Origin: Levilactobacillus angrenensis
Lineage (GTDB): Bacteria > Bacillota > Bacilli > Lactobacillales > Lactobacillaceae
Assembly (NCBI RefSeq): GCF_003946085.1
Contig: NZ_RHOB01000008.1
Coordinates: 62,001-126,000, forward strand
Length of the DNA stretch: 64,000 bases
Direction of reading: 5' to 3'
In this document: positions 2,461 to 64,000 of the stretch, in pieces
Position numbering within the stretch: the first letter of the stretch is position 1
Layout: each line of letters begins with the position of its first letter
Translations under genes and position numbers: made by a program
The notes under the pieces: generated by a model
Database searches by the model: none
Seen by the model: only the letters and a program-made list of their open reading frames with translations
Told to the model about the DNA's origin: nothing

Positions 2461-2540
2461 GAAATTCGCTAAATCAGGAGCCGGACTCAGCCAGGGCTTC
2501 CGGTTGCTCTGGGGGAGACTATCAGCCCGAGGAGCGGTCT
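2461..2540 (-). repeat. SIR element, degenerate fragment (copy a)
   Basis: About 80 bp resembling the 3' part of the SIR element in reverse orientation: the blocks GGAGCC..GACTCAGCCAGGG and CCGAGGAGCGGTCTT recur in the same order and spacing as in copies g and i, with many substitutions. It lies in the same gap as copy b. Confidence 0.5.
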
Positions 2541-2628
2541 TTTAGTAGAAACTCTAACATCTAACAACGTTTCCTTAAGAATCAAAAAATCTGATCGAAC
2601 AACCGGTAAAACATGCTAAACTAAAACT

Positions 2629-3098
2629 GAAGGTTGAAAGATAAATATCAGCTAGAAGCACTGTCACCACGCGACTGGTGACGTAAAAATTAGTTGTTTA
2701 TAGCATCCTAGTGCGGACTGGCCGCCTACCATCCGCCAACTATGGTTGCTAGTAACAATCGGTTTAGCCACAGGTAATGGCTGATTTGACAACTAGTCTT
2801 TAATTAAGACAAGGTTACTGATAATCGCTAACCCCGCCGGAGACAGCCAGAGGTGGAGCCAGCTGTGTCGACGGTGTTGGCTGAGGTCTTTTCTCAGCCT
2901 ACAGCGTGGGGCGACTTGGGAGACTGGCGGGGTTTGCCAGGCTTCAAAGCGAACTGGAAGCCCGCTCTTTGGCTGGAGGTGTCCCCCATAGCAGGCGGAA
3001 TCTCTGGCTGACGCAGGCTCCTGGTTTCACTAATTTTAACGGACAGAACACTGTCGTTCCAGGGACTGTCGCGTTAATGCTAATTTCAACCTTTAGAC
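2629..3098 (+). repeat. SIR element, internally deleted (copy b)
   Basis: Forward copy of about 470 bp. It begins GAAGGTTGAAAG and ends TTTCAACCTTTAGAC, the family's terminal inverted repeats. Relative to full copies it lacks about 200 bp between ACTATGG and TTGCTAGTAAC. A 9-bp direct repeat ACTAAAACT (2620-2628 and 3099-3107) flanks it and may be a target-site duplication. The right hairpin (arms 2915-2928 and 2936-2949) retains 12 of 14 pairs. It fills most of the gap between ugpC and the response regulator. Confidence 0.85.
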
Positions 3099-6344: not shown

Positions 6345-6546
6345 CTTGCGACGAATCGGCTTGAGTTCGTCGGCCACAGCAATATCTGATGAGAGACTGG
6401 TTCGCGGGAACTGGTCTTTTTTCGTGTCTGCGCGTTGTGAGCATCGCCACCCCCTGGCTGACGCAGTCCTTGGTTTCACTAGTTCTGGTGGACAAAACGC
6501 TGTTGATTCGGGAGTCAAGACATTAATTCAACTTTCAACCTTTAGC
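6345..6546 (+). repeat. SIR element, composite partial copy (copy c)
   Basis: The 3' part (6452-6546) follows the SIR consensus (CTGGCTGACGCAG ... TTTCAACCTTTAG). The 5' part (about 6365-6430) is a different module, shared with copy d at 7770-7840, that contains a terminator-like hairpin. No coding gene is seen in the 6260-6666 gap. Confidence 0.7.
6395..6422 (+). terminator. Terminator-like hairpin inside SIR copy c
   Basis: Stem GACTGGTTC/GAACTGGTC with two G-U pairs, a four-base loop, then six T. The corresponding stem in copy d has different but still paired bases. Confidence 0.7.
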
Positions 6547-6666
6547 CCATTAATATAAATCTGAGAATATCGGGAATCAACGCACACAACATGTAATGAT
6601 TATGCTATGATAATATTGTTTCAGGGTAAGATTACTGAGGCTGAAAACAGTGGAAGAAGGAAAATA

Positions 6667-7551
6667 ATGGAAAATGCAAAGTTTTGTCCGCACTGCGGGA
6701 CTGAATTAGATGCGGGGGTCAAGTTTTGCCCCAAGTGTGGTTACAAGTTAACCAGTGAAGCGGCGACTCAAGCCAACGCGACACAAACAACGACTGAGGC
6801 GAATAAAACCGCTCAGTCGGCACAGTCAACGGGGAACACGAACGGTAATGGTGGTTTTTCAGAACGTTTAGACGCAATGGTCAACTGGGTGGCAAATAAC
6901 TGGGTAACGGCAATTATTATCGTTGCCGCACTGTTGATCTTTACGCTGGTGACCCGGGCAATTTTTTATAATGTCTGGTTGGGTGTCATTGCCTTGATCG
7001 CAGTTTTGGCTTGGTTATATAGCGTGGCTTGGACGCGTGGCAGTGGTGCGACCGGATTTGAACAAAAATTACGGCACACGGCTAACGAAACAGCTAAGCA
7101 GACGGCTAAGGCGGCTAAGACGGTTAATAACGACCAGACAAATTCGGAGCCAATCAAGCAGGCAACTGAGACGACGGATACTGCTTCACAGGCCCCCGCT
7201 CAGCCGCAGCTGCAACAAGCAAGTGCCAATGCCCAAGCCACGATGGCGGAGCAAGCACCTGCACAGCCGGCTGGTCAGAGTAGCGGCAACACCGTTTATA
7301 TTCAGCAGGCTCAGCAGCGAAGCAACGGTCTGGGAACGGCCGGCTTTGTCCTGGCCTTGATTTCACTGTTTACTTCCATTATTCCAATTGTAGATTGGGT
7401 GGTCTGGTTCTTGGGTGCCCTGTTCTCATTTATTGGGTTGTTCCGAAAGCCACGGGGCTTAGCCATCGCTGGCTTTGTCATCTCATTCATTGGTGTTATT
7501 ATTATTCTGACCTTGGCTGCCACTATTGCGGGCATGCTGGGAATGATGTAA
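6667..7551 (+). CDS. Zinc-ribbon membrane protein with C-terminal DUF4190-like domain
   Basis: A 294-residue protein. The N-terminal zinc ribbon has two CPxCG pairs (FCPHCG and FCPKCG), followed by a low-complexity Thr/Gln/Ala linker, two hydrophobic helices (about 75-120), a long Gln/Ala-rich segment, and a C-terminal pair of helices separated by the basic FRKPRGLAIAGF turn typical of DUF4190-like domains. The start ATG at 6667 begins MENAKFCPHCG; the in-frame upstream ATG at 6607 would add 20 residues that are not part of the domain. No substrate or partner is evident. A strong terminator follows directly, so it is a single-gene unit. Confidence 0.8.
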   Translation: MENAKFCPHCGTELDAGVKFCPKCGYKLTSEAATQANATQTTTEANKTAQSAQSTGNTNGNGGFSERLDAMVNWVANNWVTAIIIVAALLIFTLVTRAIFYNVWLGVIALIAVLAWLYSVAWTRGSGATGFEQKLRHTANETAKQTAKAAKTVNNDQTNSEPIKQATETTDTASQAPAQPQLQQASANAQATMAEQAPAQPAGQSSGNTVYIQQAQQRSNGLGTAGFVLALISLFTSIIPIVDWVVWFLGALFSFIGLFRKPRGLAIAGFVISFIGVIIILTLAATIAGMLGMM

Positions 7552-7581
7552 ATTTAAAAAAATTGGCATCAGGCCAATCAA

Positions 7582-7621
7582 AAAAGCTTGCGAAAGTCCA
7601 TCTGGATTTTCGCAAGCTTTT
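7582..7621. terminator. Bidirectional terminator
   Basis: Perfect 14-bp stem AAAAGCTTGCGAAA/TTTCGCAAGCTTTT, 30 bases after the zinc-ribbon gene. Confidence 0.92.
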
Positions 7622-7633
7622 CAGGTTAAAGCA

Positions 7634-7850
7634 ACTATGAAAGGTGAAAAATCGGCTCAAAATACTGTCATCACGCGATTCATGGCGTGAAAATTAGTCG
7701 CTTACAGCTTCGTAGTTCGAGCGGGCCCAAATATGAGGTGAAGGTGGCGGACCGGACTGAGCCTGAGAAGCGTTCGTCTGCCACAGCAATCATCCGATGG
7801 GAGATTGGTTCTCTGGAACCAATCTTTTTTCGTATCTTCAGTGGCGTGGC
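7634..7850 (+). repeat. SIR element, partial copy (copy d)
   Basis: The 5' part resembles SIR (the GTCATCACGCGATTCATGGCG block, then TTACAGCTTCGTAGTTCGAGC and GGCGGACCGGACTGAGCCTG). It then switches to the module shared with copy c (from about 7770) and loses the rest of the element. Confidence 0.7.
7803..7830 (+). terminator. Terminator hairpin inside SIR copy d
   Basis: Perfect stem GATTGGTTC/GAACCAATC, four-base loop, six T. Homologous to the hairpin at 6395 with compensating differences. Confidence 0.75.
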
Positions 7851-8060
7851 GTCGCTGGGACGGGACTTGACGGTAAGCGTTATCGGCTTATTAGTTAACC
7901 ATTAACTTAAAACTAGTTCAAAAATTATTTACATAATTCAGCACTTTTATAAATCTGGGCATAGTTTTCTGGGAGTAACGGGTCTAACATTAGGCACATG
8001 TTGTTATCTGGGGTAAAACCTACCGGCCCACAATTTGCTTGTGGTAAACCGGGTACGTAA

Positions 8061-9682: not shown

Positions 9683-9848
9683 AGAGAAACGGTCTTTCGG
9701 TTCACTTGGTACACCAGCTAAAGAAAGTAGCATTGACGCGGTAATTCCCAGAACGATAGTGTTCTGTCCACTAAAATTAGTGAAACCAGGAGCCTGCGTC
9801 AGCCAGAAATTCCGCCTGCTATGGGGGACACCTCCGTCCCAATCTCGT
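9683..9848 (-). repeat. SIR element, 3' part (copy e)
   Basis: Reverse copy. Read on the minus strand it gives GGAGGTGTCCCCCATAGCAG, the CTGGCTGACGCAGGCTCCTG block and GACAGAACACTATCGTTC, as in the 3' third of full copies. It ends near the variant terminus CTACTTTCTTTAGC. Confidence 0.75.
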
Positions 9849-9852
9849 AAGA

Positions 9853-11313
9853 TCAACTAGGTGCCACGGACAAGGTCCAAGTCACAACGCTCTGGTAATC
9901 GCCGGCCGCAATTTCTGGGTCTGCCGTCAGGTCCAAACTGCTGTCAGTGACGTCGAAGTTTTGGCCGTCGTAGTCACTGGACGTGTAGATCTTGGTGGCT
10001 GTCGACGTGTCAGGAATATTTTCGTCCAACCGTGAAGTTGGGTCGTACAGATCAAGTGTCGCTGTGCCCAGGTGACCATCAGTGCCATCACTTAAGGTAA
10101 AGGGGGCAAGACTGGCTGTTAACGTCCAGTCGCCACCGGTCGTTCGACTATCCATGACGGACAGTTCACCGTTATTGTTGCCATCGTAAGCACTGCCGCT
10201 GGTAGTGGTGTCTGTGTTTTCCAACGCGGCATCGTTGTCGATCAGCGTGCCAACGTCGACAGCGCCGAAGTTGAAGTTGGGTACCGCGGTTAACGCTAGC
10301 AAACCGCTCTTGTTGACGGTGAGCAGGGCGGAGTTGGTGTTGACCGATTTGGTACTGCCATTGACCGTGTAGTTCAGCGTGGCGTAATATGACGTTCCGT
10401 TGTCGCCGCCGACGGAAGTCTTCGACACGGTGTAGCTGGTACTGGTCGAATTCAGCGCGGTGACGTCACCGTCTTGAACGCGATACCAGTTGGCAACGGT
10501 CATGCCCTCTGGCAAATCTTTCAGCGTGAAGGTGGCGTCACTTCCTTCGTTGACCGTAACATTTTGTAAGGCCCCGACCATGATCTTGACGGAATCGCTG
10601 TGGCCGTTACTGGTCCCGGTGATGGTAACGATACCGTGGTCGTTAGCGGTCCCAGATGTACTGCTAGAGGCGTCAGTCGCCGTGACGTTCCCGTATTCAT
10701 CGACGGAAGCCAGCGACGGATTACTGCTGGTCCAGGTGATGGGGTCGGTCGCTGTGCTTGGCGTCAAGGTTGCACTAACCGTGGTCGATGCGCCGTTGTA
10801 GATGCCGGGACTGGCACTGGTGACTTGGATATCCGTTGTGGGTACCCGTGCCGGTGTAATGGTGACGGTCGCGATTCGTGACCATTCATTGTAGAACAAA
10901 CCGATCCCAGTAAAATCGTATTCACATTGAAATTGTAACTGCGTCGGACTGGTAACACTGGGCGCGGTAAACGTATAAGTCGTACTGTTTGAGCCAACCT
11001 TGTTGTAAGTCGTACCGCCATCAGTGGATTCCCACCAGACGTATTTCCGACTACCTAAAGGGTTGGTCAGTGTTTCCAAAATATTCCGGGTCCCCTTGGC
11101 GGAGAGCGTCACGGTATCACCGGAAATGTGGTTGGAGTCGATTGGCTCCTGCGTGAAACCCCCGGCCAGGTTAATCCCCATAATCGTCGTTGGTGGCGAG
11201 GTCGGTGGCTGTGGCGCACTGGTGGCAGCGTGTGCGGAGATGCCGACACTTAAGCCGACAAGCAAGACGAACAGGCTGACACCTAGTCGTTTGATTTGTT
11301 GCCAAACTTCCAT
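9853..11313 (-). CDS. WxL-domain surface protein with Ig-like (Big_2) domain
   Basis: A 486-residue secreted protein that likely binds peptidoglycan through its C-terminal WxL domain. The signal peptide is MEVWQQIKRLGVSLFVLLVG... with a predicted cut after SAHA. Immunoglobulin-like repeats follow; the segment around TPARVPTTDIQVTSASPG and TDPITWTSSNPSLASVD is a bacterial Ig-like group 2 module. The WxL domain has the first motif WTLTASLAPF and the terminal motif YQSVVTWTLSVAPS. The start at 11313 is chosen for GGAGG eight bases upstream; the TTG at 11328 is less likely. It is the last gene of the WxL operon, 17 bases after the WxL-interacting protein gene. Confidence 0.9.
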   Translation of the reverse strand: MEVWQQIKRLGVSLFVLLVGLSVGISAHAATSAPQPPTSPPTTIMGINLAGGFTQEPIDSNHISGDTVTLSAKGTRNILETLTNPLGSRKYVWWESTDGGTTYNKVGSNSTTYTFTAPSVTSPTQLQFQCEYDFTGIGLFYNEWSRIATVTITPARVPTTDIQVTSASPGIYNGASTTVSATLTPSTATDPITWTSSNPSLASVDEYGNVTATDASSSTSGTANDHGIVTITGTSNGHSDSVKIMVGALQNVTVNEGSDATFTLKDLPEGMTVANWYRVQDGDVTALNSTSTSYTVSKTSVGGDNGTSYYATLNYTVNGSTKSVNTNSALLTVNKSGLLALTAVPNFNFGAVDVGTLIDNDAALENTDTTTSGSAYDGNNNGELSVMDSRTTGGDWTLTASLAPFTLSDGTDGHLGTATLDLYDPTSRLDENIPDTSTATKIYTSSDYDGQNFDVTDSSLDLTADPEIAAGDYQSVVTWTLSVAPS

Positions 11314-13749: not shown

Positions 13750-14095
13750 TAGTCCTCTAAAACTAGCGAAACCAGAGGCCTGCGTCAGCCAGGGTTTCGC
13801 CTGCTATGGGGAACACCTCCGGCGAAGAGTGGCGATTATCAGCAATATTGTGTTAGTTCAAGACTAGTTGCTAAATCAACTGCCTGTTGGCGCATGTTTC
13901 GGTTATGAGGCCAGAGACGTGGATTTCCGGCTCAAAGCGAGGCCGAGACCATCCCTCAGGCTCGGTCCGCCCACCGCTTTCCACCCCATAGTTGGCGGGC
14001 GGTAGGCGGCTAGTTCTCACTAGGATGCTGTAACCAACTAGTTTTTACACCATGAGCCGCGTGGTGACAATGTTTCTAGCTGCAACCTTTGGCGA
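13750..14095 (-). repeat. SIR element, internally deleted (copy f)
   Basis: Reverse copy of about 345 bp between the WxL operon and the Rrf2 gene. It keeps the GTCACCACGCGG..CATGGTG hairpin, GCCAACTATGGGGTGG and GCTTTGAGCCGGAAATC (minus-strand reading), but has lost the AGTT hairpin and the right hairpin. The left terminus reads CAAAGGTTGCAGC. Confidence 0.75.
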
Positions 14096-20583: not shown

Positions 20584-20600
20584 GTAAGATGATGCATTAA

Positions 20601-20645
20601 AAGGTGGCTGTTACCGGAATATTTCTGGTGACAGCCACCTTCTTT
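20601..20645 (+). terminator. Terminator after the AbrB/DUF998 gene
   Basis: AAGGTGGCTGT..ACAGCCACCTT, 11-bp perfect outer stem with a further imperfect inner stem, followed by a short T-rich run. SIR copy g starts ten bases later. Confidence 0.8.
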
Positions 20646-20655
20646 AATTACGGGG

Positions 20656-21294
20656 CTAAAGGTTGAAAGTAGTAATAACGCGGTAGTTCCAGAAATGACA
20701 GTGTTCTGTCCACCAAAATTAGCGAAACCAGGGCCTGCGTCAGCCAGAGATTCCGCCTGCTATGGGGGACACCTCCAGCCTGAGAAACGGTCTTCCGGTT
20801 CGCTTTGAAGACTGGCAAAATCCGCCAGTCTTCAAAGTCGCCCCACGCTGTAGGCTGAGAAAAGGCCTCAGCCAACACCGTCGACACAGCTGGCTCCACC
20901 TCTGGCTGCCTCCGACGGATTGGTGATAGTCAGCAAGACGGCGTTAGTTAAAGACTAGTTGTTAGATCAACCGCTAACTGGGGCTAAGCCAACTATTACT
21001 AGCACGCACACTTGTAGCCGAGAGTCCGCCAAATATGGGTTCAGCCGTGGGAGTTCCCTTAGTGGCATGGGTCACGCCGCTTAGGAAACTGGCGTCTTTG
21101 AGACGTGACTTTCGGCTCAAAGCGAGGCCGAGACCGTTTCTCAGGCTCGGTCCGGTCCGCCCACCGCGTTCCAACCCATAGTTGGCGGACGGTAGGCGGC
21201 CAGTTCGAACTATGAAGCTGTAAACGACTATTTTTTTACGTCATGAGTCGCGCGGTGATAAGACTTCTAGCTGATTTTTATCTTTCGGCCTAAG
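20656..21294 (-). repeat. SIR element, full-length (copy g)
   Basis: Reverse copy of 639 bp. The plus-strand left end is CTAAAGGTTGAAAG; the right end CTTTCGGCCTAAG is a degenerate partner. It contains the perfect right hairpin CTTTGAAGACTGGC/GCCAGTCTTCAAAG (20803-20837), the closing stem (21024-21041 with 21173-21190) and the AGTT hairpin (21052-21059 with 21083-21090). It abuts the stop codon of the next minus-strand gene. ORFs inside it are by-products of the repeat. Confidence 0.9.
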
Positions 21295-21295
21295 G

Positions 21296-21835
21296 CTATT
21301 GGTGATTCAAGACAGACATCTTCGCCGGCATCTGCCGTACCTTTTGCGCCGCGTGCTGGGCATTGATTCGCTTGACGATTTTGCTAAGCGTGGTCGTGGC
21401 CGTTTGGTCCTGGCGGAATGAATGGACGATCATGCTGTCATAGGTGACCCGGTCGCCTTGTAAAGAAAACCAGTTGGGGGCGAGATTTTTATCTGCCGTC
21501 GTTACATGCTGATTCGGCCAGACCAAGTAGCGCGTGGGGTGCTTAGTCGCATAGTGTTCGACCTGCCAGCCCGCCTGAAAATCGTTGACCTCCTGCCAGC
21601 GCTGGAGCTTGGGTTCTTTGATGGCATAGTAAATGATGGCACTGTAGGCGAGCTTGGGATGGTGAGCCAAGTCGTTGGTCGTCAGTTTGGTAGACTGGTG
21701 GTGCGACGGGTGCGTTGCCGCTGACTGAGTGGTTGGGCTAGGGGACTGGTGGTGCGACGTTGCCACGACTGCAATCAGTCCGCCAATCAGCAGTAGGCCA
21801 ACGAGACCGACCAGCCATTTAGTTAGTCTTGACAT
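21296..21835 (-). CDS. Secreted or membrane-anchored hypothetical protein
   Basis: A 179-residue protein with a single N-terminal helix (MSRLTKWLVGLVGLLLIGGL), a Ser/Thr/His-rich spacer and a globular part starting LTTNDLAHHPKLAYSAIIYYAI. There is no lipobox cysteine, so it is probably held by an uncleaved signal anchor. The DL-x-x-x-PKL-x-YSAI-x-Y pattern resembles small surface proteins common in lactobacilli, but I cannot name the family with certainty. AGGAGGT is well spaced from the ATG. Its stop codon touches SIR copy g, which may have replaced its original 3' flank. Confidence 0.75.
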   Translation of the reverse strand: MSRLTKWLVGLVGLLLIGGLIAVVATSHHQSPSPTTQSAATHPSHHQSTKLTTNDLAHHPKLAYSAIIYYAIKEPKLQRWQEVNDFQAGWQVEHYATKHPTRYLVWPNQHVTTADKNLAPNWFSLQGDRVTYDSMIVHSFRQDQTATTTLSKIVKRINAQHAAQKVRQMPAKMSVLNHQ

Positions 21836-42977: not shown

Positions 42978-43634
42978 TTGGCTTTAACGACCGCCAAAAA
43001 TTATTTATTACTCACAGAAGGCATTGACCGGCGACCGCGATTGCGAACTCGGTTCACCACGCAGGCCTACCTGGTATTAGCCGCTGTGCTGGACCTGGTG
43101 GATCAAGGCGTTTTGGCCGTGACCGGTGACCAAATGACGATTGCTGACCCGGCGCGCTTTGATCAGTTGCCGCAGTATTTAAACGCCTTCAAGATTCGCC
43201 TCAAGTCGGACTTGGCGCAGGATGCGCAGTTGAAAACTGCACTGAAACTGGTGACTAGCTGGGATATCGTGAATGCACTTTACGATGGCTTGGGCGCCCA
43301 GACACTCGCCGAGCAAACGACAGAGCGAGTGATTTTTCAAAATAATCTGAAGCCCCACGTCATCTACGTCCCCACGGACACCAGTCGTAATCAGGTGCGC
43401 ACCGCCTTGCTACAGCAACTGTCGACGACGAACCCGACCGCGGCTGCCTGGAATCTATATGAGATTTTAGCGCAACAGCAGGCCTTAACGTGGGTCTTTT
43501 CCGCTGACCAGCAACGGCGACTAAAGACGGCCGTTGCTCAGCAGCCAGGCAATCCCACGGTCCAACTACTGGTTGCCCAGGCCGGTGAAATTATTCAAGC
43601 CAAAAAGTTTGAAATGGATGGCTGGTTGAGTTAA
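42978..43634 (+). CDS. GPP34 (Golgi-phosphoprotein-3-like) protein
   Basis: A 218-residue, mainly helical cytoplasmic protein. LTTAKNYLLLTEGIDRRPR, LVLAAVLDLVDQGVLAVT and DQMTIADPARFDQL follow the order of the bacterial GPP34 domain. Bacterial members are of uncertain function and may bind membrane phosphoinositide-like lipids or act in secretion. TTG at 42978, with GGGAGG seven bases upstream, is preferred to the longer start at 42951. SIR copy i lies between its stop codon and the next terminator. Confidence 0.55.
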   Translation: MALTTAKNYLLLTEGIDRRPRLRTRFTTQAYLVLAAVLDLVDQGVLAVTGDQMTIADPARFDQLPQYLNAFKIRLKSDLAQDAQLKTALKLVTSWDIVNALYDGLGAQTLAEQTTERVIFQNNLKPHVIYVPTDTSRNQVRTALLQQLSTTNPTAAAWNLYEILAQQQALTWVFSADQQRRLKTAVAQQPGNPTVQLLVAQAGEIIQAKKFEMDGWLS

Positions 43635-43636
43635 AT

Positions 43637-44260
43637 GATTAAAGGGCGAAAGTAGACTTAACATGTTGATTCCTGGAATGACACTAGTGAAACCAGGAGC
43701 CTGCGTCAGCCAGGGTTCCGTCTGCTAGGGGGAACACCTCCAGCCTGAGGAGCGGTCTTCCGGTTCGCTTGAAAGCCTGGCAGAATTCGCCAGGCTCTCA
43801 AGTCGTCCCACGCTGTAGGCTGAGACAAAACCTCAGCCAACACCGTCGACACAGCTGGCTCCACCCTGGCTGCCTCCGGCGGGGTTAGTAATCGTCAACA
43901 ACATTGTGTTAGTCAAAGACTGGTTACCAATTTAGCTGCAACTTGGAACTAAATCAACTGTGACTAGAACGCACTTTAGTAGCCGAGAGTCCGTCAACTA
44001 TGGGTTCAGCCGTGGGAGTTGTCTTAGCGGTGTGATTCATGCCGCTTAGACAACTGGCGTCTTTGAGACGTGATTTTCGGCTCAAAGCGAGGCCGAGACC
44101 GTTTCTCAGGCTCGGTCCGGTCCGCCCACCGCGTTCCAACCCATAGTTGGCGGACGGTAGGCGGCCAGCTCAAACTACGAAGCTGTAAACGACTAATCTT
44201 TACGCCCTGAGTCGCGTGGTGACAATGTTTTTTGCTGGTTTTCGGCTTTCAATCTTGAGT
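43637..44260 (-). repeat. SIR element, full-length (copy i)
   Basis: Reverse copy of about 620 bp. Termini are TTAAAGGGCGAAAG and CTTTCAATCTTGAG. An 11-bp direct repeat TTGAGTTAAAT (43626-43636 and 44255-44265) flanks it. The right hairpin (43768-43781 with 43789-43802) differs from copy g at five base pairs yet still pairs. The AGTT hairpin is 44017-44024 with 44048-44055. The element separates the GPP34-like gene from the terminator at 44278. Confidence 0.9.
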
Positions 44261-44277
44261 TAAATCTGCTGTCAAGT

Positions 44278-47386: not shown

Positions 47387-47414
47387 TCAATTGATGAATC
47401 CATTGCCTACGAAC

Positions 47415-47466
47415 GCTAGGGGTTCTGCCTGCTAGGGGGAACGCCGCCAGCCTGAGGAGCGGTTCA
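47415..47466 (-). repeat. SIR element fragment (copy j)
   Basis: CGCCTGCTAGG-like block, GGGGGAAC and CCAGCCTGAGGAGCGG match the corresponding stretch of full copies in reverse orientation. Only about 50 bp remain. Confidence 0.6.
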
Positions 47467-48785: not shown

Positions 48786-49542
48786 TTTTGGAAAAGTCTT
48801 TCAAGTGATGAGTCGCGACCGATTCCGGACCATCAATAAAATTATTTTGGTCGAACTGGCCGTCATTGCTGGGACGCTACTGTGGAGCGTGGCGACGCGC
48901 GGCATTCAAAGCGGCGAGTTCTTCGGCGCAACCATGTCCTGGTCGGTGCCGGCGCTCTTCGCGGCCATCATTCTCATGAGTGTTGCCAACGAACACGTTT
49001 ATACCCGCGACACTTACCGATTGATTCCAATTGGGGAAACGAAACTATATACCACGAATTTGTTATCATCATTGCTCATGTTCCTTTACTTCAGTGTGAT
49101 TCAAGTCGTCCTGTACGCGATTACGAGTACGATCGACGCCAAGTTCTTAAGTAGTTTATTTGCGGATCTCATGAACCCCCATTATCCGCTGGGCGAGGCC
49201 ATCAAGATCGTCATTGGCCTGGAGCTGATGGGCCTGGCACTAGTTATCCTTAGCTGGACCACGATTTCTTTGGTCCACCTAGTTGTCAGTGCCACCAACA
49301 ATTTCCTGCCTAATGTCAGTCGGCGGGCCGTTGACACCGTGCTCTATATCGTTGTCATCTACCTGGTCGTGCGAGTAGCGGCCTTCATATTCCATGAGTT
49401 CAATAACTTGAGCGGCATGATGAGTGCTGGTATGCAAACCCAGTTTATCGTGAACATTGTGGGTATCCTCGTGGTTGCCGCAATCGAGGCAGTAATCAAC
49501 GTGGTCCTGCTGAAGAAGTGGGTTGAAACGATTCCGAATTAA
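48778..49542 (+). CDS. ABC-2-like permease
   Basis: A 254-residue membrane protein with about six helices, partner of the YtrB-type ATPase. The start at 48778 has GGAGG; the longer frame lies within the ATPase gene. A polar loop NEHVYTRDTYRLIPI after the second helix is typical of these exporters. The regulator suggests induction by cell-wall antibiotics or bacteriocins; this is inference from the family. Confidence 0.85.
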   Translation: MTSFGKVFQVMSRDRFRTINKIILVELAVIAGTLLWSVATRGIQSGEFFGATMSWSVPALFAAIILMSVANEHVYTRDTYRLIPIGETKLYTTNLLSSLLMFLYFSVIQVVLYAITSTIDAKFLSSLFADLMNPHYPLGEAIKIVIGLELMGLALVILSWTTISLVHLVVSATNNFLPNVSRRAVDTVLYIVVIYLVVRVAAFIFHEFNNLSGMMSAGMQTQFIVNIVGILVVAAIEAVINVVLLKKWVETIPN

Positions 49543-49621
49543 TCAGTAGAATAGAAATTGCTAAACGATAGTGGAAACGGCTGCCTTTTGGCGCACGTTT
49601 CGGCCATTTAAATTGACGCAT

Positions 49622-49656
49622 AAGGGTCTGGGATGTTTTATCCCAGGCCCGTTTTT
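49622..49656 (+). terminator. Terminator of the GntR-ABC operon
   Basis: GGGTCTGGGAT/ATCCCAGGCCC stem with one wobble, five-base loop, T5. Confidence 0.88.
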
Positions 49657-49968
49657 GTGGGTGAATGGTTTTTTAAAGTGATGTTTGAAATTAGTGAAAA
49701 ATTTTAAATTGCTGTGCATGTAACGAAAGTACGGAATCGGGTCTTCTTGTAGGATTATGCACGAGTTCAATAGAAATTATTTTCTAAAGAAACTAGATAC
49801 GTGTGCGTCAGTACTAGGTATTCAATTTTTTTGAATGGAGTATCCATTTTTATTTGATTGAATATTCACAATATAAGCATAATAATAGGGTTGTACGAGA
49901 GATTGAAGCTTTAATCTATAAAAATTGTTCTTTGAAGGGAGTTGGAATAGAAGAAGTAAACGTAGCAA
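49657..49968. other. AT-rich gap, no feature seen
   Basis: About 310 bp of low-GC sequence before the cre site. No supported ORF, hairpin or promoter pair was found. It marks the left border of the lower-GC cluster. Confidence 0.5.
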
Positions 49969-49982
49969 TGAAAGCGCAAACA
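49969..49982 (+). promoter_or_regulatory. cre site upstream of the proline-racemase-family gene
   Basis: TGAAAGCGCAAACA fits all 14 positions of the CcpA consensus TGNAARCGNWWWCA, 58 bp before the start codon. Confidence 0.8.
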
Positions 49983-50039
49983 TCGAATGGTGATTGATAA
50001 TTGGTTATCAGTAAATCCAAAGAAAGAAGTGAATGTGAA

Positions 50040-51089
50040 ATGGCTTTCAAGAGAATGTTTGATTCAGTTGAGTGTCACGAAGGTGAACCAATGCGGGTTA
50101 TTACGAGTGGTGTGCCTACAATTCCTGGAGATTCTGTGTATGAGATGGAAGAATGGCTGAAGAAAAATGATGATCAAGTCCGTCTATTGATGCTACGCGA
50201 ACCTAGAGGTATTCCAGCCACATGTGCAAACTTGATCGTGCCTGCTAAAAATCCCAAGGCCAAGGCAGGTTATATCATTATGGAACAAACGGAATATCCA
50301 ATGATGAGTGGGGGCAATACAATTGCGGTTGCCACCGCTTTACTAGAAACTGGCCAAATTTTAATGACAGAACCAGTCAGTGAATTCGATTTGGAAGCGC
50401 CTGCTGGCTTGATTCACATTAAAGCTGACTGTAAAAACGGCAAAGTAACCCGTGTCACCTTTAAGAATGTTCCGGCCTTTCCAGTATACTTAGACAAAGA
50501 AATTGACGTACCACACTTAGGAAAGGTCAAAGTTGATATTGCTTGGGGTGGGATGTTCTATTGCTGTATTGATGCAACGCAATTCGAAGGCTTGCATCTG
50601 GTACCAGAAATGGGGAGTGAAATTGCTAAAATTTCCTCGTTAGTGACGACAGCAGCAATCGATCAATTGCCGGTTAACCACCCTGACTATCCAGGAGTTG
50701 GTATTACATTGTCAATGATGCATGAGCCATCAGATGATCCTGATGTTTATATGCGTACTTCCAACTGGTACCCAACTGGCAAAGTTGATTTTGATAAGCC
50801 AGAGACTTGGAAGGGTGCCCTAGACCGAGGTGTCTGTGGTACTGGGACTTGTGCCCTAATGTCGATTGAGCATGCCAAGGGACGCTTGAAATTAAATCAA
50901 CCGTTCATTAACGAAGGTTTGCTAGGAATTCGATTTGAAGGTCGGGCCATTGAAGATACCGAGATCCACGGTCATAAAGCTATTGTGCCTACTGTGGGTG
51001 GACAATGCTGGATTTATGGATTTAACAAGTGGGTCTTGGATGATACGGATCCGTTCCAAAACGGCTTTACCATCGGTGATATTTGGTGA
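50040..51089 (+). CDS. Proline racemase superfamily enzyme (Ser/Cys type)
   Basis: A 349-residue cytoplasmic enzyme. The second catalytic motif DRGVCGTGT is intact (C266), but the first catalytic position is serine: MSGGNTI (S90) where racemases have MCGHGTI. Within this superfamily a replaced first Cys is found in trans-3-hydroxy-L-proline dehydratases and in some hydroxyproline epimerases, so simple proline racemisation is unlikely. ATG at 50040 is preferred to the GTG at 50001 by family length. A cre site precedes it, and a BCCT carrier is in the same cluster. Confidence 0.85.
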   Translation: MAFKRMFDSVECHEGEPMRVITSGVPTIPGDSVYEMEEWLKKNDDQVRLLMLREPRGIPATCANLIVPAKNPKAKAGYIIMEQTEYPMMSGGNTIAVATALLETGQILMTEPVSEFDLEAPAGLIHIKADCKNGKVTRVTFKNVPAFPVYLDKEIDVPHLGKVKVDIAWGGMFYCCIDATQFEGLHLVPEMGSEIAKISSLVTTAAIDQLPVNHPDYPGVGITLSMMHEPSDDPDVYMRTSNWYPTGKVDFDKPETWKGALDRGVCGTGTCALMSIEHAKGRLKLNQPFINEGLLGIRFEGRAIEDTEIHGHKAIVPTVGGQCWIYGFNKWVLDDTDPFQNGFTIGDIW

Positions 51090-51123
51090 GCAATTAAAAC
51101 CCTGATGGGAGGAGCGATGCTGT

Positions 51124-52404
51124 TTGGAACTATCAAAATTATCTTCGTTTAGAAAATGGCTAATGATTGGACTACTAGCATTCTTCGGTCGAGCGATTGC
51201 CAACGTTCCTTACTTACGCGAAGTGTATTATGATCAGATTATTAGCGCACTGCACATTACGAACACACAGCTGGGATTGCTGTCTAGTGCGGTGGGAATC
51301 GCTAGTTTAGTTGGTTACTTTTTTGGTGGCTTTTTGGCCGACAGAATTAGTTCGAAGAAAATGATTATGGTCTCTGGTGTTGTCGGGGGATTATTCTCTC
51401 TGTGGTACATGGCTCTGCCGTCTTTTCCCATTTTATTATTGATTCATGCTGTATTAGCCTTAGATGGCACGCTGATTTTCTGGGCAGCGTATGTCCGGAT
51501 TATTCGGATATTAGGGGGTAGTGAAGGACAAGGGAAATATTATGGCTTTGCGGAAGGTATTCGTGCAGGGTTTGGTATTCTTCTTCCCATTACCACGACA
51601 TTTATTTTGGCGCAATTTGTGAATGTTAAGCTGGGAATGAAGTCAGTCTTATTATTTTATGCAATTTGTTACTTTGCGACTAGTATCTTGGCAGCTTTCG
51701 TCTTGGTTGATGTTCGTGAAGATACCCAACCAGATCAGCCGCAGGCCAAAATAACTAAGGCAGACTATGTTGCGCTATTAAAAACGCCAGGACTATGGCT
51801 AGTCTCGTTCTTAATTTTTGGCACTTACTTAGTCTTTTCACTTCAGTCGTACACGACGCCCTATTTGACAGGAATGGGAGTCTCAAATGGTGTTGTCAGT
51901 ATGGTGGCAACGTTCCGCTCCTACGGGGTTGGTGTGATTGCTATGCCGCTGTTTGGAATCATGGCAGATAAGTGGCTGAAGTCCTCAGCCAAAGCTTGTG
52001 TGATTGGCATGACGTTGCTATTGCCATGTGCGCTAGCGATGCTATTTATCCCTAAGTCTGCACCAGTGGTTATCATCATAATGACCTTAGCTATTGGATT
52101 CTTAGCTAGTGGCACGCGCGGCGTTTACTATGCCACGCAAGATGAAGCACGGATTCCGGTTACGATGACGGGGACTGCAGCTGGCATCATTTCTACTATT
52201 GGATTTTTACCTGATGCATACGTCTTTACGCAAGTTGGTGCTTGGCTGGATAAGTATCCGGCTACGCAGGCTTATCATATGATTTGGATTTACATGGCAA
52301 TCGGTTGTTTAATTGCCATCGCTGCTGGTGGGGGCATTCTGTGGCTAGCCCTTCATCAGGGAACCAAGGTTAAGTCTAATGTTCAGACGCAGGATATTGC
52401 ATAG
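51124..52404 (+). CDS. MFS transporter of the lower-GC catabolic cluster
   Basis: A 426-residue carrier with 12 helices. Motif A-like GGFLADRISSKKMIMVSG follows helix 2. The sequence resembles anion or nitrate/oxalate-type MFS permeases more than drug pumps, including YTTPYLTGMGVSNGVVSMVA. Start TTG at 51124; GGAGG is 11-12 bases upstream. It lies 34 bases after the racemase-family gene and is probably co-transcribed, importing its substrate or exporting a product. Confidence 0.82.
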   Translation: MELSKLSSFRKWLMIGLLAFFGRAIANVPYLREVYYDQIISALHITNTQLGLLSSAVGIASLVGYFFGGFLADRISSKKMIMVSGVVGGLFSLWYMALPSFPILLLIHAVLALDGTLIFWAAYVRIIRILGGSEGQGKYYGFAEGIRAGFGILLPITTTFILAQFVNVKLGMKSVLLFYAICYFATSILAAFVLVDVREDTQPDQPQAKITKADYVALLKTPGLWLVSFLIFGTYLVFSLQSYTTPYLTGMGVSNGVVSMVATFRSYGVGVIAMPLFGIMADKWLKSSAKACVIGMTLLLPCALAMLFIPKSAPVVIIIMTLAIGFLASGTRGVYYATQDEARIPVTMTGTAAGIISTIGFLPDAYVFTQVGAWLDKYPATQAYHMIWIYMAIGCLIAIAAGGGILWLALHQGTKVKSNVQTQDIA

Positions 52405-52409
52405 TCAGT

Positions 52410-52447
52410 AAAAAGCACCACTCTAGATTTTCTAGGGTGATGCCTTT
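52410..52447. terminator. Bidirectional terminator
   Basis: AAAGCACCACTCTAGA / TCTAGGGTGATGCCTTT with wobbles, four-base loop, between convergent MFS and LysR genes. Confidence 0.82.
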
Positions 52448-52452
52448 GCTGG

Positions 52453-53319
52453 TTATGCAGGGATTGTGGCGAGGGAAACTTTGCTGCGAATCAACTGACC
52501 AAGACGCTGAACAATATCTCGATGTGTCTGATCCTTGCTAGTTAGTCCGACTTTCAGTGTGAACGGACAGTCGATTAAGTCAGTGGAGAGAATACGCATG
52601 TCAGTGGTAATGAGCGATTCGGGAAGTAAGGAGACGGCCACACCAGCTTGTACCGCTGAAGCAATGTTATCCATCATGGTGCTTTTAAATACCACTTTAA
52701 AGTTAGCGTCAGTTTTTTTCAGACATCTTAAGGAGTAGTTATTCACAATGCAATTATCTGAGAATAGCGCAACTGGGAGGGATTGGGATGCGTCAAGAGT
52801 TAGATCATGACTAGCTACCCAGAACATTTTTTCTTCCCAGAGGGGGTAATCGTCTGAATATTGCGGTTCCATAGCAACTAAGGAGATGTCAACTTTCCCT
52901 TCTGCCATTTGTTTTCGTAAGATACGGCTACGGGAGGCAACAATGTCAAAATTGTAATTGTTAAATTCTTGCTTGATTGTCGGATAGACTTTTTTGACGA
53001 GAAAGTCAACATAATCTGTGGGAACGCCAAGAGTGAGGGCGCCTTGCCAATCAACATTGCTCAGTGAATTGAATGCGGAATCATTTAGCTCTAAGATTTG
53101 TTGGGCGTATTTATACAGCGTTTCACCGGCCTGAGTCAGTGTAAGGGTATCTTTTTCCCGAATAAAAAGGGGTTCGCCCACTTGCTCCTCCAATTTTTTG
53201 ATCTGTGTACTGACAGAAGAGTGAGAACGGTAGACCATTTCAGCTGTCACATTAAACTTTTTAGTTTCAGCGGCAATGACGAAGGTATTCAAGTATTCGA
53301 GATTAAAGCGTTCTTGCAT
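52453..53319 (-). CDS. LysR-family regulator of the lower-GC cluster
   Basis: A 288-residue regulator. HTH: FNLEYLNTFVIAAETKKFN, TAEMVYRSHSSVSTQIKKL and EEQVGEPLFIREKDTLTLT; the effector domain follows. ATG at 53319 with AAGGA ten bases upstream is used; the 19 extra upstream residues do not belong to the family. It is convergent to the MFS gene and divergent from the MDR gene, so it probably controls the cluster. Confidence 0.88.
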   Translation of the reverse strand: MQERFNLEYLNTFVIAAETKKFNVTAEMVYRSHSSVSTQIKKLEEQVGEPLFIREKDTLTLTQAGETLYKYAQQILELNDSAFNSLSNVDWQGALTLGVPTDYVDFLVKKVYPTIKQEFNNYNFDIVASRSRILRKQMAEGKVDISLVAMEPQYSDDYPLWEEKMFWVASHDLTLDASQSLPVALFSDNCIVNNYSLRCLKKTDANFKVVFKSTMMDNIASAVQAGVAVSLLPESLITTDMRILSTDLIDCPFTLKVGLTSKDQTHRDIVQRLGQLIRSKVSLATIPA

Positions 53320-53394
53320 TCTATCAAATCCTTTTATGTTTTCGAGTTCCTTGTGCAAATCGTAGCATATAATCATTGCTACTTCAACGTTTAG

Positions 53395-53408
53395 TGAAAG
53401 CGTTTTAA
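53395..53408 (+). promoter_or_regulatory. Candidate cre site between LysR and MDR genes
   Basis: TGAAAGCGTTTTAA matches the consensus at 13 of 14 positions. Confidence 0.5.
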
Positions 53409-53562
53409 TTTATTGAACTCTAGGTTCATTATCATTTGATTGTCACTGAGCATGAGGAGCATATAATCGAAGATGGAAATACAAGTTAGGGATGCGCATC
53501 CGATAGCTGTATTGAGATTTAATTAATTTTGTGAATTCTTGAGCTACTAGGAGGAAATGAAC

Positions 53563-54663
53563 ATGACTGATATTCCAGAAAAAATGAGCGGTGTTTACTT
53601 AACGGGTAATGGTGGTTTTGATAAATTAGAGTACCGAGAAGATATTCCAGTGCCAACCCCTGAAGCCGGTGAAGTCTTGGTTAAAGTCGGTGCAGCTGCG
53701 GTCAACAACACGGATGTTAATACGCGGACTGGTTGGTATAGTAAGAAGGTTAAAGAGGAAAGTAATGCCGGTGGCGTCAAAGGGTTCAAAGAAGACGTTC
53801 ATGAAGATGGTACTTGGCTGGGTGAAGCCATGCATTTCCCACGTATCCAAGGGGCAGATGGCAGTGGCATTATCGTTGCGGTTGGGGATGGTGTCAGTTC
53901 TGATCGAATTGGACAACGTGTCTTGATTCGGACGATGCAAGAGCTACCGGCTAGTGATGAGGGCTTGGAATGCATTACGTTTGGTTCTGAATGTGATGGT
54001 AGCTTTGCGGAATACACCAAGACCTTGTCATCAGAAGCATTTGAAATTCATTCAGATCTAAGTGATGGAGAATTGGCGACTTTCCCATGTTCATATTCAA
54101 CGGCAGAAAACTTAGTGGTTCGGGTTGGCGTGAACAAGGGTGACGTTGTTTTAGTCACCGGAGCTTCTGGAGGTGTTGGCTCAGCACTGGTTCAATTAGT
54201 TAAGATTCGCGGTGCTAAGGTCATTGCCGTTTGTGACCCAGGGCAAGAAGATCGGGTCAAGGGTTATGGCGCTGATGAGATTCTGCTACGTGGTGATAGC
54301 TTTGTTGAGAAGATTGGCAAGATGAAGGTAGACGTTGTTTTGGACATGGTGGCGGGTCCACAATGGCCGGAATTGTTGGAAGTCTTGAAGAAAGGCGGCA
54401 AATATGGCGTCGTTGGTGCTATTGGTGGGCCAATGGTGGACTTAGATGTACGTAACCTGTACTTGAAAGACTTGAGTTTATTTGGGAGCACCTATCAGAC
54501 TAAAGAAGCCTTCACGAACTTAATTAGCTATATTGAGAAAGGTCAAATTAAGCCAGTCGTTGCTAAAGAATTCCCATTGAAGGATATCGTTAAAGCACAA
54601 AAAGTCTTTCTTTCCAAGACGTTAGTCGGTAAGATTGTTTTGAACGTGAACCCCCAAAACTAG
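53563..54663 (+). CDS. Zinc-independent MDR oxidoreductase (quinone-oxidoreductase type)
   Basis: A 366-residue dehydrogenase/reductase. The GroES-like N-domain (about 15-140) lacks the zinc-binding Cys cluster, and the Rossmann motif is LVTGASGGVGSALVQL with the following AVCDPGQEDR. It is longer than typical quinone reductases by an insert near 60-85 (YSKKVKEESNAGGVKGFKED). ATG at 53563 is eight bases after AGGAGG; ATG at 53557 is too close. Together with BCCT and the racemase-family enzyme it suggests catabolism of a betaine or cyclic amino acid. Confidence 0.85.
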   Translation: MTDIPEKMSGVYLTGNGGFDKLEYREDIPVPTPEAGEVLVKVGAAAVNNTDVNTRTGWYSKKVKEESNAGGVKGFKEDVHEDGTWLGEAMHFPRIQGADGSGIIVAVGDGVSSDRIGQRVLIRTMQELPASDEGLECITFGSECDGSFAEYTKTLSSEAFEIHSDLSDGELATFPCSYSTAENLVVRVGVNKGDVVLVTGASGGVGSALVQLVKIRGAKVIAVCDPGQEDRVKGYGADEILLRGDSFVEKIGKMKVDVVLDMVAGPQWPELLEVLKKGGKYGVVGAIGGPMVDLDVRNLYLKDLSLFGSTYQTKEAFTNLISYIEKGQIKPVVAKEFPLKDIVKAQKVFLSKTLVGKIVLNVNPQN

Positions 54664-54698
54664 AAAAGATTAGCTGATGTTCAGAAAGGTGTAGGCAT

Positions 54699-56273
54699 AT
54701 GCGGCTCAAACAACGGCTTAAACTCATACGCAAATTCATAGACCTCAAAGTGTTTTTAGTTCCAGCAGTTTTAGTTTTGTTGGTTATTGTAGCGGGGGTA
54801 TTTTATCATAAGCAATTTGGACAATTGGTAAATGCAACCTTTCAATGGTCACAACGGTATTTTAGCTGGCTCTATGCATTGGTTACCTTTAGTTTTATCC
54901 CGTTTTGTGTGTGGGCAGCCTGGGGCAAGCAAGGTCAAATTCGGTTGGGGGGCAAGCAAGCTCAACCTAGTATGTCAATGGCAACTTGGATTTCGATTAC
55001 GTTTACCTCAGGCATGGCTCTAGGCGTTGTCTTCTACGGTGTTAGCGAAGGACTGACGAATTATATGACGCCGCCGCCCTTTACGCACTTACTGCCGCAT
55101 AGTGCTGCCGCTGCCGAAACCGCACTACAGTATGTATACTTGCACTGGGGATTTCAGGCTTATGGTATTTACACGGCAGCGGGTCTGTGCTTCGCCTTTG
55201 CACTGTGGAATTTGAAACAGAAATTCGCGCTTAATTCGGCATTACAGCCATTGTTGCATGAACAAGCAAATGGCTGGATGGGTCAGCTAGTCAATTGGTT
55301 GTGCCTATATGTCCTGGTGGCCTCACTGGGAACCAACGTTGGTTTAGGGACATTGCAGTTATCAACGGGATTTCGCTATATGACTAAGTTGGCAATTAAG
55401 CCGTTGGTGTTACAGATCCTTATCATTGCCATATTGGGCATAATCGGTATCTACGCGGCCTGTTCCGGTATTCACCGGGGTATCAAGTTAGTCAGTAACA
55501 TTAACATGAGTGTTTTCGCAACGTTACTGGCTTGGGCGTTTATCTTTGGTGGATCCGTGTTCATCTTAAATAATACGTTGTCTTCAATTGGCGGCTATCT
55601 GAATAATTTTGTTGAAATGGGATTATATTTAGAACCTGTGAAACAGACGGGATGGGTAGCCAAAAATACAATTTATTATTGGGCTTGGTGGACAACAGTA
55701 GCACCAATCACGGGCTTGTTTTTGGCTCGGTTGGCTAGGGGACGAACGATTCGTCAGTTTGTGTTGGTCAATTTGCTAGTGCCAGTTGGGTTCATCTTCA
55801 TTTGGTTTGGAACGTTTGGTTCATCAGCCATTTTTACTCAGATGCATCATGTTGATATCTGGCGTGATTTGCAGACGAAAGGTTATCCGGTGGCATTCTT
55901 CGCTTACCTGAACACGTTACCTTGGGGGAATTTGATGATGATTCTGGGATTGATTGCGGTGATTCTCTCATTCGTAACTCAGTACGAATCAATGATTTAT
56001 TCAATTGCTGAGATGTCAGTAAATCAATCGGAGCTGTTGCCAAATGATCATCGGGTCAATTATCTGAAGATATTTTGGGGCATAGCGATGTCATTGATGG
56101 GATTCATCCTGATTCAGTCAGGCGGGCTAACCACAGTTCAGACGTCGGTGGTTGTTCTTGGAATTCCGATTCTCTTGATTCTGGTTGCCTATGTTGTTGG
56201 GTTTATCAGGGCAATCAGAAGGTATGATGAAACAGTGGTTGCAATCAAGTGTGTGGACGACGCTAAAAAATAA
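54699..56273 (+). CDS. BCCT-family transporter
   Basis: A 524-residue carrier with 12 helices, from the family that imports betaine, carnitine, choline or proline betaine. The signature stretch WAWWTTVAPITGLFLARLA, with RGRTIRQF, is present, as is the FTSGMALGVVFYGVSEGL segment in helix 3. Basic termini suit the family but an osmosensor tail is short. It follows the MDR gene by 36 bases. Substrate is inferred to be a quaternary amine; not provable here. Confidence 0.9.
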   Translation: MRLKQRLKLIRKFIDLKVFLVPAVLVLLVIVAGVFYHKQFGQLVNATFQWSQRYFSWLYALVTFSFIPFCVWAAWGKQGQIRLGGKQAQPSMSMATWISITFTSGMALGVVFYGVSEGLTNYMTPPPFTHLLPHSAAAAETALQYVYLHWGFQAYGIYTAAGLCFAFALWNLKQKFALNSALQPLLHEQANGWMGQLVNWLCLYVLVASLGTNVGLGTLQLSTGFRYMTKLAIKPLVLQILIIAILGIIGIYAACSGIHRGIKLVSNINMSVFATLLAWAFIFGGSVFILNNTLSSIGGYLNNFVEMGLYLEPVKQTGWVAKNTIYYWAWWTTVAPITGLFLARLARGRTIRQFVLVNLLVPVGFIFIWFGTFGSSAIFTQMHHVDIWRDLQTKGYPVAFFAYLNTLPWGNLMMILGLIAVILSFVTQYESMIYSIAEMSVNQSELLPNDHRVNYLKIFWGIAMSLMGFILIQSGGLTTVQTSVVVLGIPILLILVAYVVGFIRAIRRYDETVVAIKCVDDAKK

Positions 56274-56304
56274 ATCGGCTTTGTCGCGGGCACCGGTAAG
56301 GCTG

Positions 56305-56351
56305 ACGTTAAAAACGACCACCGAATTTTTCTCGGTGGTCGTTTTTAACGT
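56305..56351. terminator. Bidirectional terminator
   Basis: Perfect 20-bp stem ACGTTAAAAACGACCACCGA (56305-56324) with 56332-56351, seven-base loop, between BCCT and ROK genes. Confidence 0.95.
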
Positions 56352-56366
56352 ATTGGTAAGTTGCTG

Positions 56367-57485: not shown

Positions 57486-57806
57486 AGCTAACTCCTTTAC
57501 ATATTTTGTGGGTAACGATGGTGAGAATCCGGAGGTGAAGCCGCATCCTCAGACACAACCAGCCGTTATTACCCTTCAGTGTAGCACAAATTAGCCTGAA
57601 GAAAGTCAATTTATAAAATAATGTAACCGCTGTCTTTGAGGGTGGCTTAGCCAAGCTTTTCTGCAAAATCGCTATTGAAATAAATGATCAAGTGAAAGTT
57701 ATTTGAAAATAATTGCTTTATTGGTATAGGTTTATGAGGTCCAACAAACAGGTAATTGTGATTAATTGGACCAATTGTGAAATAAATAATTATAAAGAAA
57801 AAGGAT

Positions 57807-63522: not shown

Positions 63523-63532
63523 AACAAATAAC

Positions 63533-64000
63533 TGAAGGTTGAAAGCTGAAAATCAGCTAGAAATATTGTCACCACGCGAATCATGGTGTAAGAATTAGTC
63601 ATTTACAGCTTCGTAGTTTGAGCTGGCCGCCTACCGTCCGCCAACTATGGGTTGGAACGCGGTGGGCGGACCGGACCGAGCCTGAGAAACGGTCTCGGCC
63701 TCGCTTTGAGCCGGAAATCACGTCTCAAAGACGCCAGTTGCCTAAGCGGCATGAACCGCGCCACTAAGGCAACTCCCACGGCTGAACCCATATTTGGCGG
63801 ACTCTCGGCTTCAAGTGTGTGTGCTAGTAACGATTGGTTTAGCCCCAGCCAGCAGTTGATTTAGCAACTAGTCTTGAACTAACACAATATTGCTGATGAT
63901 CGTCACTCTTCGCCGGAGGCAGCCAGGGTGGAGCCAGCTGTGTCGACGGTGTTGGCTGAGGTCTTTTCTCAGCCTACACCGTGGGGCGACTTGAAAGACT
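63533..64000 (+). repeat. SIR element, runs off the window (copy k)
   Basis: Forward copy; the first 468 bp are visible, starting at GAAGGTTGAAAGCTGAAAATC. It contains the closing stem (63636-63653 with 63785-63802), the AGTT hairpin (63736-63743 with 63767-63774) and the GGCTGAG/CTCAGCC hairpin (63954-63974). The right third lies beyond the window. Confidence 0.9.

What the first reader, a model, noticed from the sequence alone, without database searches (positions are those of the whole stretch)
20656..21294. A family of ~620-640 bp structured intergenic repeats (SIR), at least eleven copies in 64 kb
Seen: copies a-k at 2461, 2629, 6345, 7634, 9683, 13750, 20656, 39860, 43637, 47415 and 63533 share the same ordered blocks, lie only between genes and occur in both orientations. 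Ends are imperfect inverted repeats (CTNAAGGTTGAAAG / CTTTCAACCTTNAG). The left-half block AGCCTGAGAAACGGTCT..CGCTTTGAG reappears inverted in the right half, so the whole element is a large imperfect foldback. Density, size and internal folding are unlike ordinary REP or short MITE sequences. I do not recognise it as a named family; novelty is inference.
Basis: partly seen in the sequence, partly recalled or inferred. Interest (0 to 1): 0.82.

Follow-up and report, generated by a model that had tools for sequence, protein, structure and literature searches.

The report
Mobile twin-hairpin DNA repeats in lactobacilli
The window holds members of a large family of short mobile DNA elements, each built from two mirror-image branched hairpins whose base pairing has been kept while the letters changed, which points to a transposon that uses a folded-DNA part to spread.

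Summary
The repeat is real, genome-wide and widespread in its genus. The host is a Levilactobacillus. At least 84 strong copies of the left hairpin module lie in the 2.8-Mb genome. Of the eleven window copies three are full length (g, i, k); the rest are deleted forms or fragments. Full copies are about 615-644 bp, bounded by CTRAAGGTTGAAAG inverted repeats. Of 31 two-ended host copies 21 have a target duplication, mostly 7-8 bp, against 22 of 930 mismatched flank pairs. Several sites lack the element in related species. No gene and no Rfam match were found: it is a non-autonomous, MITE-like DNA transposon whose transposase was not found. Inside lie two homologous ~180-200 bp modules in inverted orientation, each a branched imperfect palindrome with strong compensatory change, traceable into five other genera. 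Unlike RNase P of the same order (G-T to A-C 11:1), the modules show 0.2-1.4 on the modelled strand, so the constraint looks DNA-like. Young copies carry private mutations evenly, but variants shared between copies are 3-4 times rarer in the modules: the constraint acts on the spreading lineage rather than on resident copies. Best reading: cis-acting folded-DNA modules of a MITE-like transposon, a new variant of a known kind.

The parts
20656..21294 (+). copy g, full length, both modules; left end CTAAAGGTTGAAAG, degenerate right end, no clear duplication
   Evidence: absent from the matching site in G003; in G033 the site holds an unrelated 641-bp segment
20731..20917 (+). left (L) module of g, branched imperfect palindrome
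   Evidence: R1 216 bits; structure and covariation
21014..21212 (-). right (R) module of g, homologous to L, inverted; limits approximate
   Evidence: R1 45.6 bits at 21016-21199; profile match; R alignment and covariation
43637..44257 (+). copy i, full length, both modules
   Evidence: absent from matching sites in G003 and G033
43629..43636. target duplication AGTTAAAT left of i (holds the upstream gene's stop codon); found by eye, not counted as a duplication by the script
44258..44265 (.). target duplication AGTTAAAT right of i
63532..64000 (-). copy k, full length but cut by the window end (continues to about 64170); duplication TTATTTGT
   Evidence: (L013)
2627..3096 (-). copy b, both terminal repeats, L module intact, most of R module deleted
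   Evidence: in G003 the site is shorter by about 540 bp and has no match
2835..3020 (-). L module of b
   Evidence: R1 196 bits
39866..40137 (-). copy h, right end missing, L module deleted (junction 91|369 in g coordinates); R module present
   Evidence: absent from matching sites in G003 and G033
13752..14082 (+). copy f, internally deleted; G033 also holds an element piece in this intergenic stretch
9684..9976 (+). copy e, fragment; G003 also holds element pieces in this intergenic stretch
7639..7775 (-). copy d, right-end fragment
6454..6545 (-). copy c, left-end fragment
2462..2541 (+). copy a, fragment
47396..47463 (+). copy j, fragment

Best explanation
A family of non-autonomous, MITE-like DNA transposons of Levilactobacillus. 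Shown: 14-bp terminal inverted repeats CTRAAGGTTGAAAG, target duplications of mostly 7-8 bp, absence from matching sites in related species, no genes inside. Shown: two homologous branched-palindrome modules in inverted orientation, kept by Watson-Crick compensation with recurrent fixed mismatches. Inferred: a transposase acting in trans on the terminal repeats cuts and inserts the element. Inferred: the modules act in cis as folded DNA (hairpin or cruciform) during excision, replication or insertion, because they are constrained in the lineage of copies that spread but not detectably in copies once inserted.
For: Ends and duplications: 21 of 31 two-ended copies against 22 of 930 control flank pairs. 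Terminal repeat, exact, in 23 of 35 genus genomes, 83 sites in the host, no hits of the reversed control in any of the 35. Same architecture with duplications in G017. Absent from matching sites: g, h, i in G003; h, i in G033. Modules 0.90 mean pairwise identity, other parts 0.74-0.75, 30 copies. Private changes of the 20 youngest copies even, shared variants 3-4 times rarer in modules; Fisher p 0.018, 0.002, 0.002, 0.006 at cut-offs of 4, 6, 8, 12 private changes. Covariation: 23 of 49 pairs with changes on both sides among 36 sequences; in 28 rows mostly from other genera, WC 936, GT 20, AC 29 cells outside P2. RNA yardstick: RNase P GT/AC 11.3; modules 0.22, 0.35 (L, host and other Levilactobacillus), 1.44 (other genera) and 1.29 (R) on the modelled strand. 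Fixed mismatches: A.A in P4 of L 68 of 70 and 90 of 99; C.T in P3 52 of 70 and 87 of 99 (L), 128 of 133 (R). Deletion junctions often remove most or all of one module, as expected of DNA hairpins (established knowledge of palindrome instability).
Against: No transposase partner: 20 stretches at terminal repeats without a listed partner gave defective copies or nothing; of 60 IS256/ISL3 loci one had an inward pair of repeat-like words, beside and not around the transposase, and the host's ISL3 copies are contig-end fragments. L modules show strand polarity: on the centre-to-outside strand GT/AC is 5.2 and 2.8, which an RNA or single-stranded DNA of that strand could explain. In G017 six of eight duplication-bearing elements among 30 of 72 terminal-repeat sites lack an intact module pair: they may move without it or lose it later. 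Of 72 module-bearing host loci 18 show one recognisable end and 23 none, including a lone 214-bit module. Over all 35 full-length copies private changes are denser in the outer parts (0.87 and 0.66 per site) than in modules (0.26, 0.24) or centre (0.33), which I put down to copies with replaced ends; the test is then not significant (p 0.13; centre only p 0.002). With the cut-off of 4, centre only gives p 0.19.
Confidence: 0.5

Rival explanations
1. Ordinary MITE whose hairpins are incidental: pairing is maintained mutationally by template switching in quasi-palindromes, with no selected function of the modules.
For: Compensation is nearly pure Watson-Crick with few GT or AC intermediates; MITEs usually fold well (recalled).
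Against: Template switching should erase mismatches, yet A.A in P4 of L modules (68 of 70, 90 of 99) and C.T in P3 (52 of 70, 87 of 99 in L; 128 of 133 in R) persist. Modules are more constrained than neighbouring element DNA.
Confidence: 0.22
2. The modules are a structured RNA (for example an RNA guide, a processing or insulation signal) transcribed from the centre outwards, carried by a MITE.
For: Strong compensatory change; L modules have GT/AC 5.2 and 2.8 on the centre-to-outside strand, and L and R both have the better consensus energy there.
Against: On that strand R modules show 0.78 and other genera 0.91, against 11.3 for RNase P. No promoter-like site in copy g (0 found, 0.5 expected, so weak), no Rfam family, no orientation bias to flanking genes in tandem contexts (8 against 8). 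Resident young copies are not detectably protected.
Confidence: 0.18
3. Host-beneficial intergenic element (terminator, nucleoid or regulatory site) kept at each locus by selection on the host.
For: Intergenic; 0 of 29 scored copies between divergent genes; very high copy number; in two intergenic stretches (copies e and f) a relative also holds element pieces.
Against: g, h and i are absent from matching sites; six of 35 genus genomes have no blastn match (one of them, G005, has R1 matches); private mutations of young copies fall evenly. Avoiding promoters is expected of any insertion that survives.
Confidence: 0.07

Closest known systems
MITEs (for example Correia/NEMIS, RUP; features recalled)
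   Same: Small, no genes, terminal inverted repeats, target duplications, many intergenic copies, strong folding.
   Different: Usually shorter with one simple foldback (recalled); here about 615-644 bp with two separate branched modules that covary across genera; no parent IS found.
IS200/IS605-type and REP/RAYT elements (recalled)
   Same: Imperfect DNA hairpins near the ends, high copy number.
   Different: Those make no target duplication and have no terminal inverted repeats (recalled); both are present here.
Foldback transposons such as Galileo (recalled; only its entry in the listing was seen)
   Same: Structured inverted arms, ~7-bp duplications, non-autonomous copies dominate (recalled).
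   Different: Eukaryotic, with long repeat arms; here short terminal repeats plus internal branched modules.
Rfam structured RNAs (GOLLD, ROOL, HEARO and others; names recalled)
   Same: Large, branched, conserved pairing.
   Different: No Rfam match at gathering score in the window; pair chemistry lacks the wobble signature of RNA on the modelled strand.

Membership tests
MITE / non-autonomous DNA transposon | terminal inverted repeats | tested here: met
   CTRAAGGTTGAAAG: 83 exact sites in the host genome, 0 for the reversed pattern; with one mismatch 138 against 5. 31 of 72 module loci show both ends
MITE / non-autonomous DNA transposon | target site duplication | tested here: met
   21 of 31 against 22 of 930 control pairs, mostly 7-8 bp
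MITE / non-autonomous DNA transposon | no transposase or other gene inside | tested here: met
   no ORF of 100 aa or more within copy g; 4 of 30 copies overlap an ORF of 101-153 aa, none larger
MITE / non-autonomous DNA transposon | insertion polymorphism between relatives | tested here: met
   g, h, i missing in G003; h, i missing in G033; copies e and f share their intergenic stretch with element pieces in one relative each
MITE / non-autonomous DNA transposon | autonomous parent IS sharing the ends | tested here: not met
   none at 20 stretches with unpaired terminal repeats or around the transposase in 60 IS256/ISL3 loci; other IS families not searched
Structured RNA | G-U tolerated far more than A-C in covarying pairs | tested here: not met
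   0.22, 0.35, 1.44, 1.29 on the modelled strand against 11.3 for RNase P; on the other strand 5.2 and 2.8 for L modules, 0.91 and 0.78 for the rest
Rfam family | score at or above gathering threshold | tested here: not met
   0 matches in the window
IS200/IS605 or REP/RAYT | insertion without target duplication, ends without inverted repeats (recalled) | tested here: not met
Integron attC site | R/L core sites recombined by IntI | not tested
   considered only by analogy
ISfinder-listed element | identity to a catalogued IS or MITE | not testable with these tools
   ISfinder is not held

The most novel reading that the evidence does not exclude
A transposon family that uses a pair of multi-branched DNA hairpin modules, with conserved strand-marking mismatches, as a cis recognition or replication device for an unknown mobilising machinery. 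The modules act as portable cassettes that occur with terminal repeats, as bare pairs or singly across several Lactobacillaceae genera.
Probability: 0.3. Interest if true: 0.85.

Novelty: new variant of a known kind. Interest (0 to 1): 0.62.

Why it matters
If the modules act as folded DNA, this is an unusually clear natural case of selection on DNA secondary structure, separable from RNA by pair chemistry, with about a hundred copies per genome as replicates. It would open a direct test of how hairpin modules help a target-duplicating transposon, and it supplies a lineage-against-resident-copy test that can be used on other repeats. It also flags a large source of genome variation in Levilactobacillus for which six literature searches showed no description.

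Tried and rejected
Rejected: a single whole-element foldback (modules fold locally); a known Rfam RNA; a plasmid, phage or viral home (no match of copy g in plasmids or phages; no exact match of a module core in viral contigs; whether those collections hold much Levilactobacillus was not checked); IS256 as present mobiliser (no match in the host genome); ISL3 (no matching ends around the transposase; host copies are contig-end fragments). Stretches around terminal repeats in G026, G020 and G015 that might have bounded a long element looked like separate short elements. A 197-bp repeat pair in G014 without modules had no clear duplication. Bare module pairs gave no duplication above control (17 of 22 loci had a findable right end). 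Alignment A3 held rows with wrong coordinates on reverse-strand loci and was not used; the R alignment was redone (133 distinct rows kept of 151 hits; shorter and identical ones dropped). The tRNA yardstick had only 10 tRNAs with some mis-set stems (GT 9, AC 1) and was replaced by RNase P (30 loci, 29 distinct rows, one of them short). The profile search mixed both module types after iteration. Alignment A2 (28 rows) holds three rows from G005, which is of the host's genus, and two 33-base reverse matches of about 15 bits. Sampling: 72 of the 84 strong host modules were examined (70 loci plus two window copies); one search scored 40 of 296 candidates, 150 of 993, at most 6 per genome, so copy counts are lower bounds.

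Literature: searches (listings and abstract starts only) and passages of PMC2267715 (among lactobacilli the passages name only L. johnsonii) showed no description of this family.

Full report
What is there. The window is G000:C61:62001-126000 of a 2.8-Mb draft genome. A module-core pattern finds 69 stretches in named genomes, all Levilactobacillus (the host's own records may be left out there). Contigs of same-genus handles match those records in length (G020:C7 83862 and G026:C54 210958), so the host is a Levilactobacillus; its family, Lactobacillaceae, is general knowledge. Copy g matches 39 other places over at least 509 of its 639 bases. A covariance model of the left module (R1: 36 sequences, 187 positions, 49 pairs) finds 129 matches among the 150 scored of 993 candidates; 84 of them exceed 150 bits and none lies between 127 and 150. 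In the genus 29 of 35 genomes match copy g by blastn, host included, and one genome of another family has a weak match. In 395 genomes of the order R1 finds 17, in 6 of 80 genera, all in the same family (strict filters).

Anatomy. Full copies run TIR, ~63 bp, L module (~181 bp), ~100 bp centre, R module (~200 bp), ~66 bp, TIR. L and R are homologous and inverted. Each module has an outer stem P1, a hairpin P2, a hairpin P3 (TTTGAAGCC...GTCTTCAAA with a common C.T mismatch) and a hairpin P4 (in L GTAAG...CTAAC with an A.A mismatch). The RNAalifold pairing of P2 in A1 is doubtful, so P2 is left out of the L-module and other-genera counts that I quote. Outside P2 the host L modules have GT 17 and AC 55 cells, those of other Levilactobacillus 58 and 56; all R pairs, P2 included, give 256 and 156, of which 130 GT are one constant pair. 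Whole copy g folds better than all of 20 shuffles as single-stranded DNA on each strand (z -7.0 and -6.1).

Mobility. Of 72 module-bearing host loci 31 have both terminal repeats, 18 one and 23 none (g itself counts as one-ended because its right end is degenerate). Of the 31, 21 have a duplication directly at the ends, mostly 7-8 bp, against 22 of 930 mismatched flank pairs. In G003, syntenic at mostly 82-87% identity, g, h and i are absent and the flanks meet; at b the site is about 540 bp shorter, without a match. G033 also lacks h and i; at the g site it holds an unrelated 641-bp segment. Not every site differs: the stretches of fragments e and f hold element pieces in G003 and G033 respectively. 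The terminal repeat occurs in 23 of 35 genus genomes, the reversed control in none. G017 has 619-621 bp elements of the same build with duplications, plus shorter derivatives and an 894-bp copy whose interior holds about 340 bp of unrelated DNA.

Where the constraint acts. Among 30 host copies the modules are 0.90 identical and the other parts 0.74-0.75 (TIR 0.80). In 35 full-length copies, private changes of the 20 youngest are spread evenly (0.095 and 0.089 per site in modules; 0.13, 0.122 and 0.086 outside), while variants shared between copies are 0.29-0.30 per site in modules against 0.90-1.27 outside. Over all 35 copies private changes are much denser in the outer parts (0.87, 0.66) than in modules (0.26, 0.24) or centre (0.33), which I attribute to replaced ends. 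With ends trimmed and shared meaning three or more copies, Fisher p is 0.018, 0.002, 0.002 and 0.006 at cut-offs of 4, 6, 8 and 12 private changes and 0.13 with all copies (centre only: 0.19, 0.035, 0.045, 0.006, 0.002). My reading: the modules matter for becoming a new copy more than for staying one.

DNA or RNA. In covarying pairs RNase P of the same order has GT 113 and AC 10. Host L modules have GT 9 and AC 41, modules of other Levilactobacillus 30 and 85, other genera 26 and 18, R modules 108 and 84 on the modelled strand. No module set reaches the RNA ratio on either strand; L modules lean to the centre-to-outside strand (5.2 and 2.8). Nearly pure Watson-Crick compensation together with persistent mismatches fits a DNA hairpin that must be well paired but strand-marked; that step is inference. 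Deletion junctions often take out most or all of one module, and in G017 two derivatives share a junction that by eye lies at short direct repeats, as in slippage across DNA hairpins (established knowledge; inference here).

Context. Of 30 copies 29 could be scored: 13 lie between convergent genes, 16 in tandem (8 and 8 by orientation) and 0 between divergent genes; the window background is 9 divergent of 54 neighbouring ORF pairs (simple ORF calls, no test made).

What is not explained. No autonomous partner was found. Bare module pairs and lone modules with good module sequence but without terminal repeats are common, and bare pairs show no duplication above control. Loci from other genera often show a single module. 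These suggest that the module is a cassette older than its present carrier.

Noticed in passing
window 6423-7870: A gene of 314 aa (6607-7551, weak sub-cutoff zinc-ribbon and TcaA-like N-terminal scores) lies between element fragments c and d; the ~1.45-kb segment is missing at the matching place in G003.
   Followed up: partly
L232 1501-2394 (G017:C10:4724-5617): An 894-bp element with intact ends and duplication TTAAATTA carries about 340 bp of unrelated DNA, like a captured fragment.
   Followed up: partly
L279 1415-1611 (G014:C2): A 197-bp stretch between terminal-repeat-like ends in a species without blastn matches to the element; interior unrelated and no clear duplication.
   Followed up: partly
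L070 2013-3341 (L. cerevisiae): Five module matches in tandem and inverted arrangement within 1.3 kb.
   Followed up: no
bare copies, e.g. L105, L094, L205: CCGCCTTACCGTTC..., the outer end of the R module, also stands upstream of the L module, making a second possible inverted end pair.
   Followed up: no
window 49542-61967: About 12 kb of the window is missing at the matching place in G003 but present in G033.
   Followed up: no
G033 at the site of copy g (window 20585-21303): The site holds a 641-bp unrelated segment that seems to carry a small secreted-protein gene (by eye) instead of the element.
   Followed up: partly
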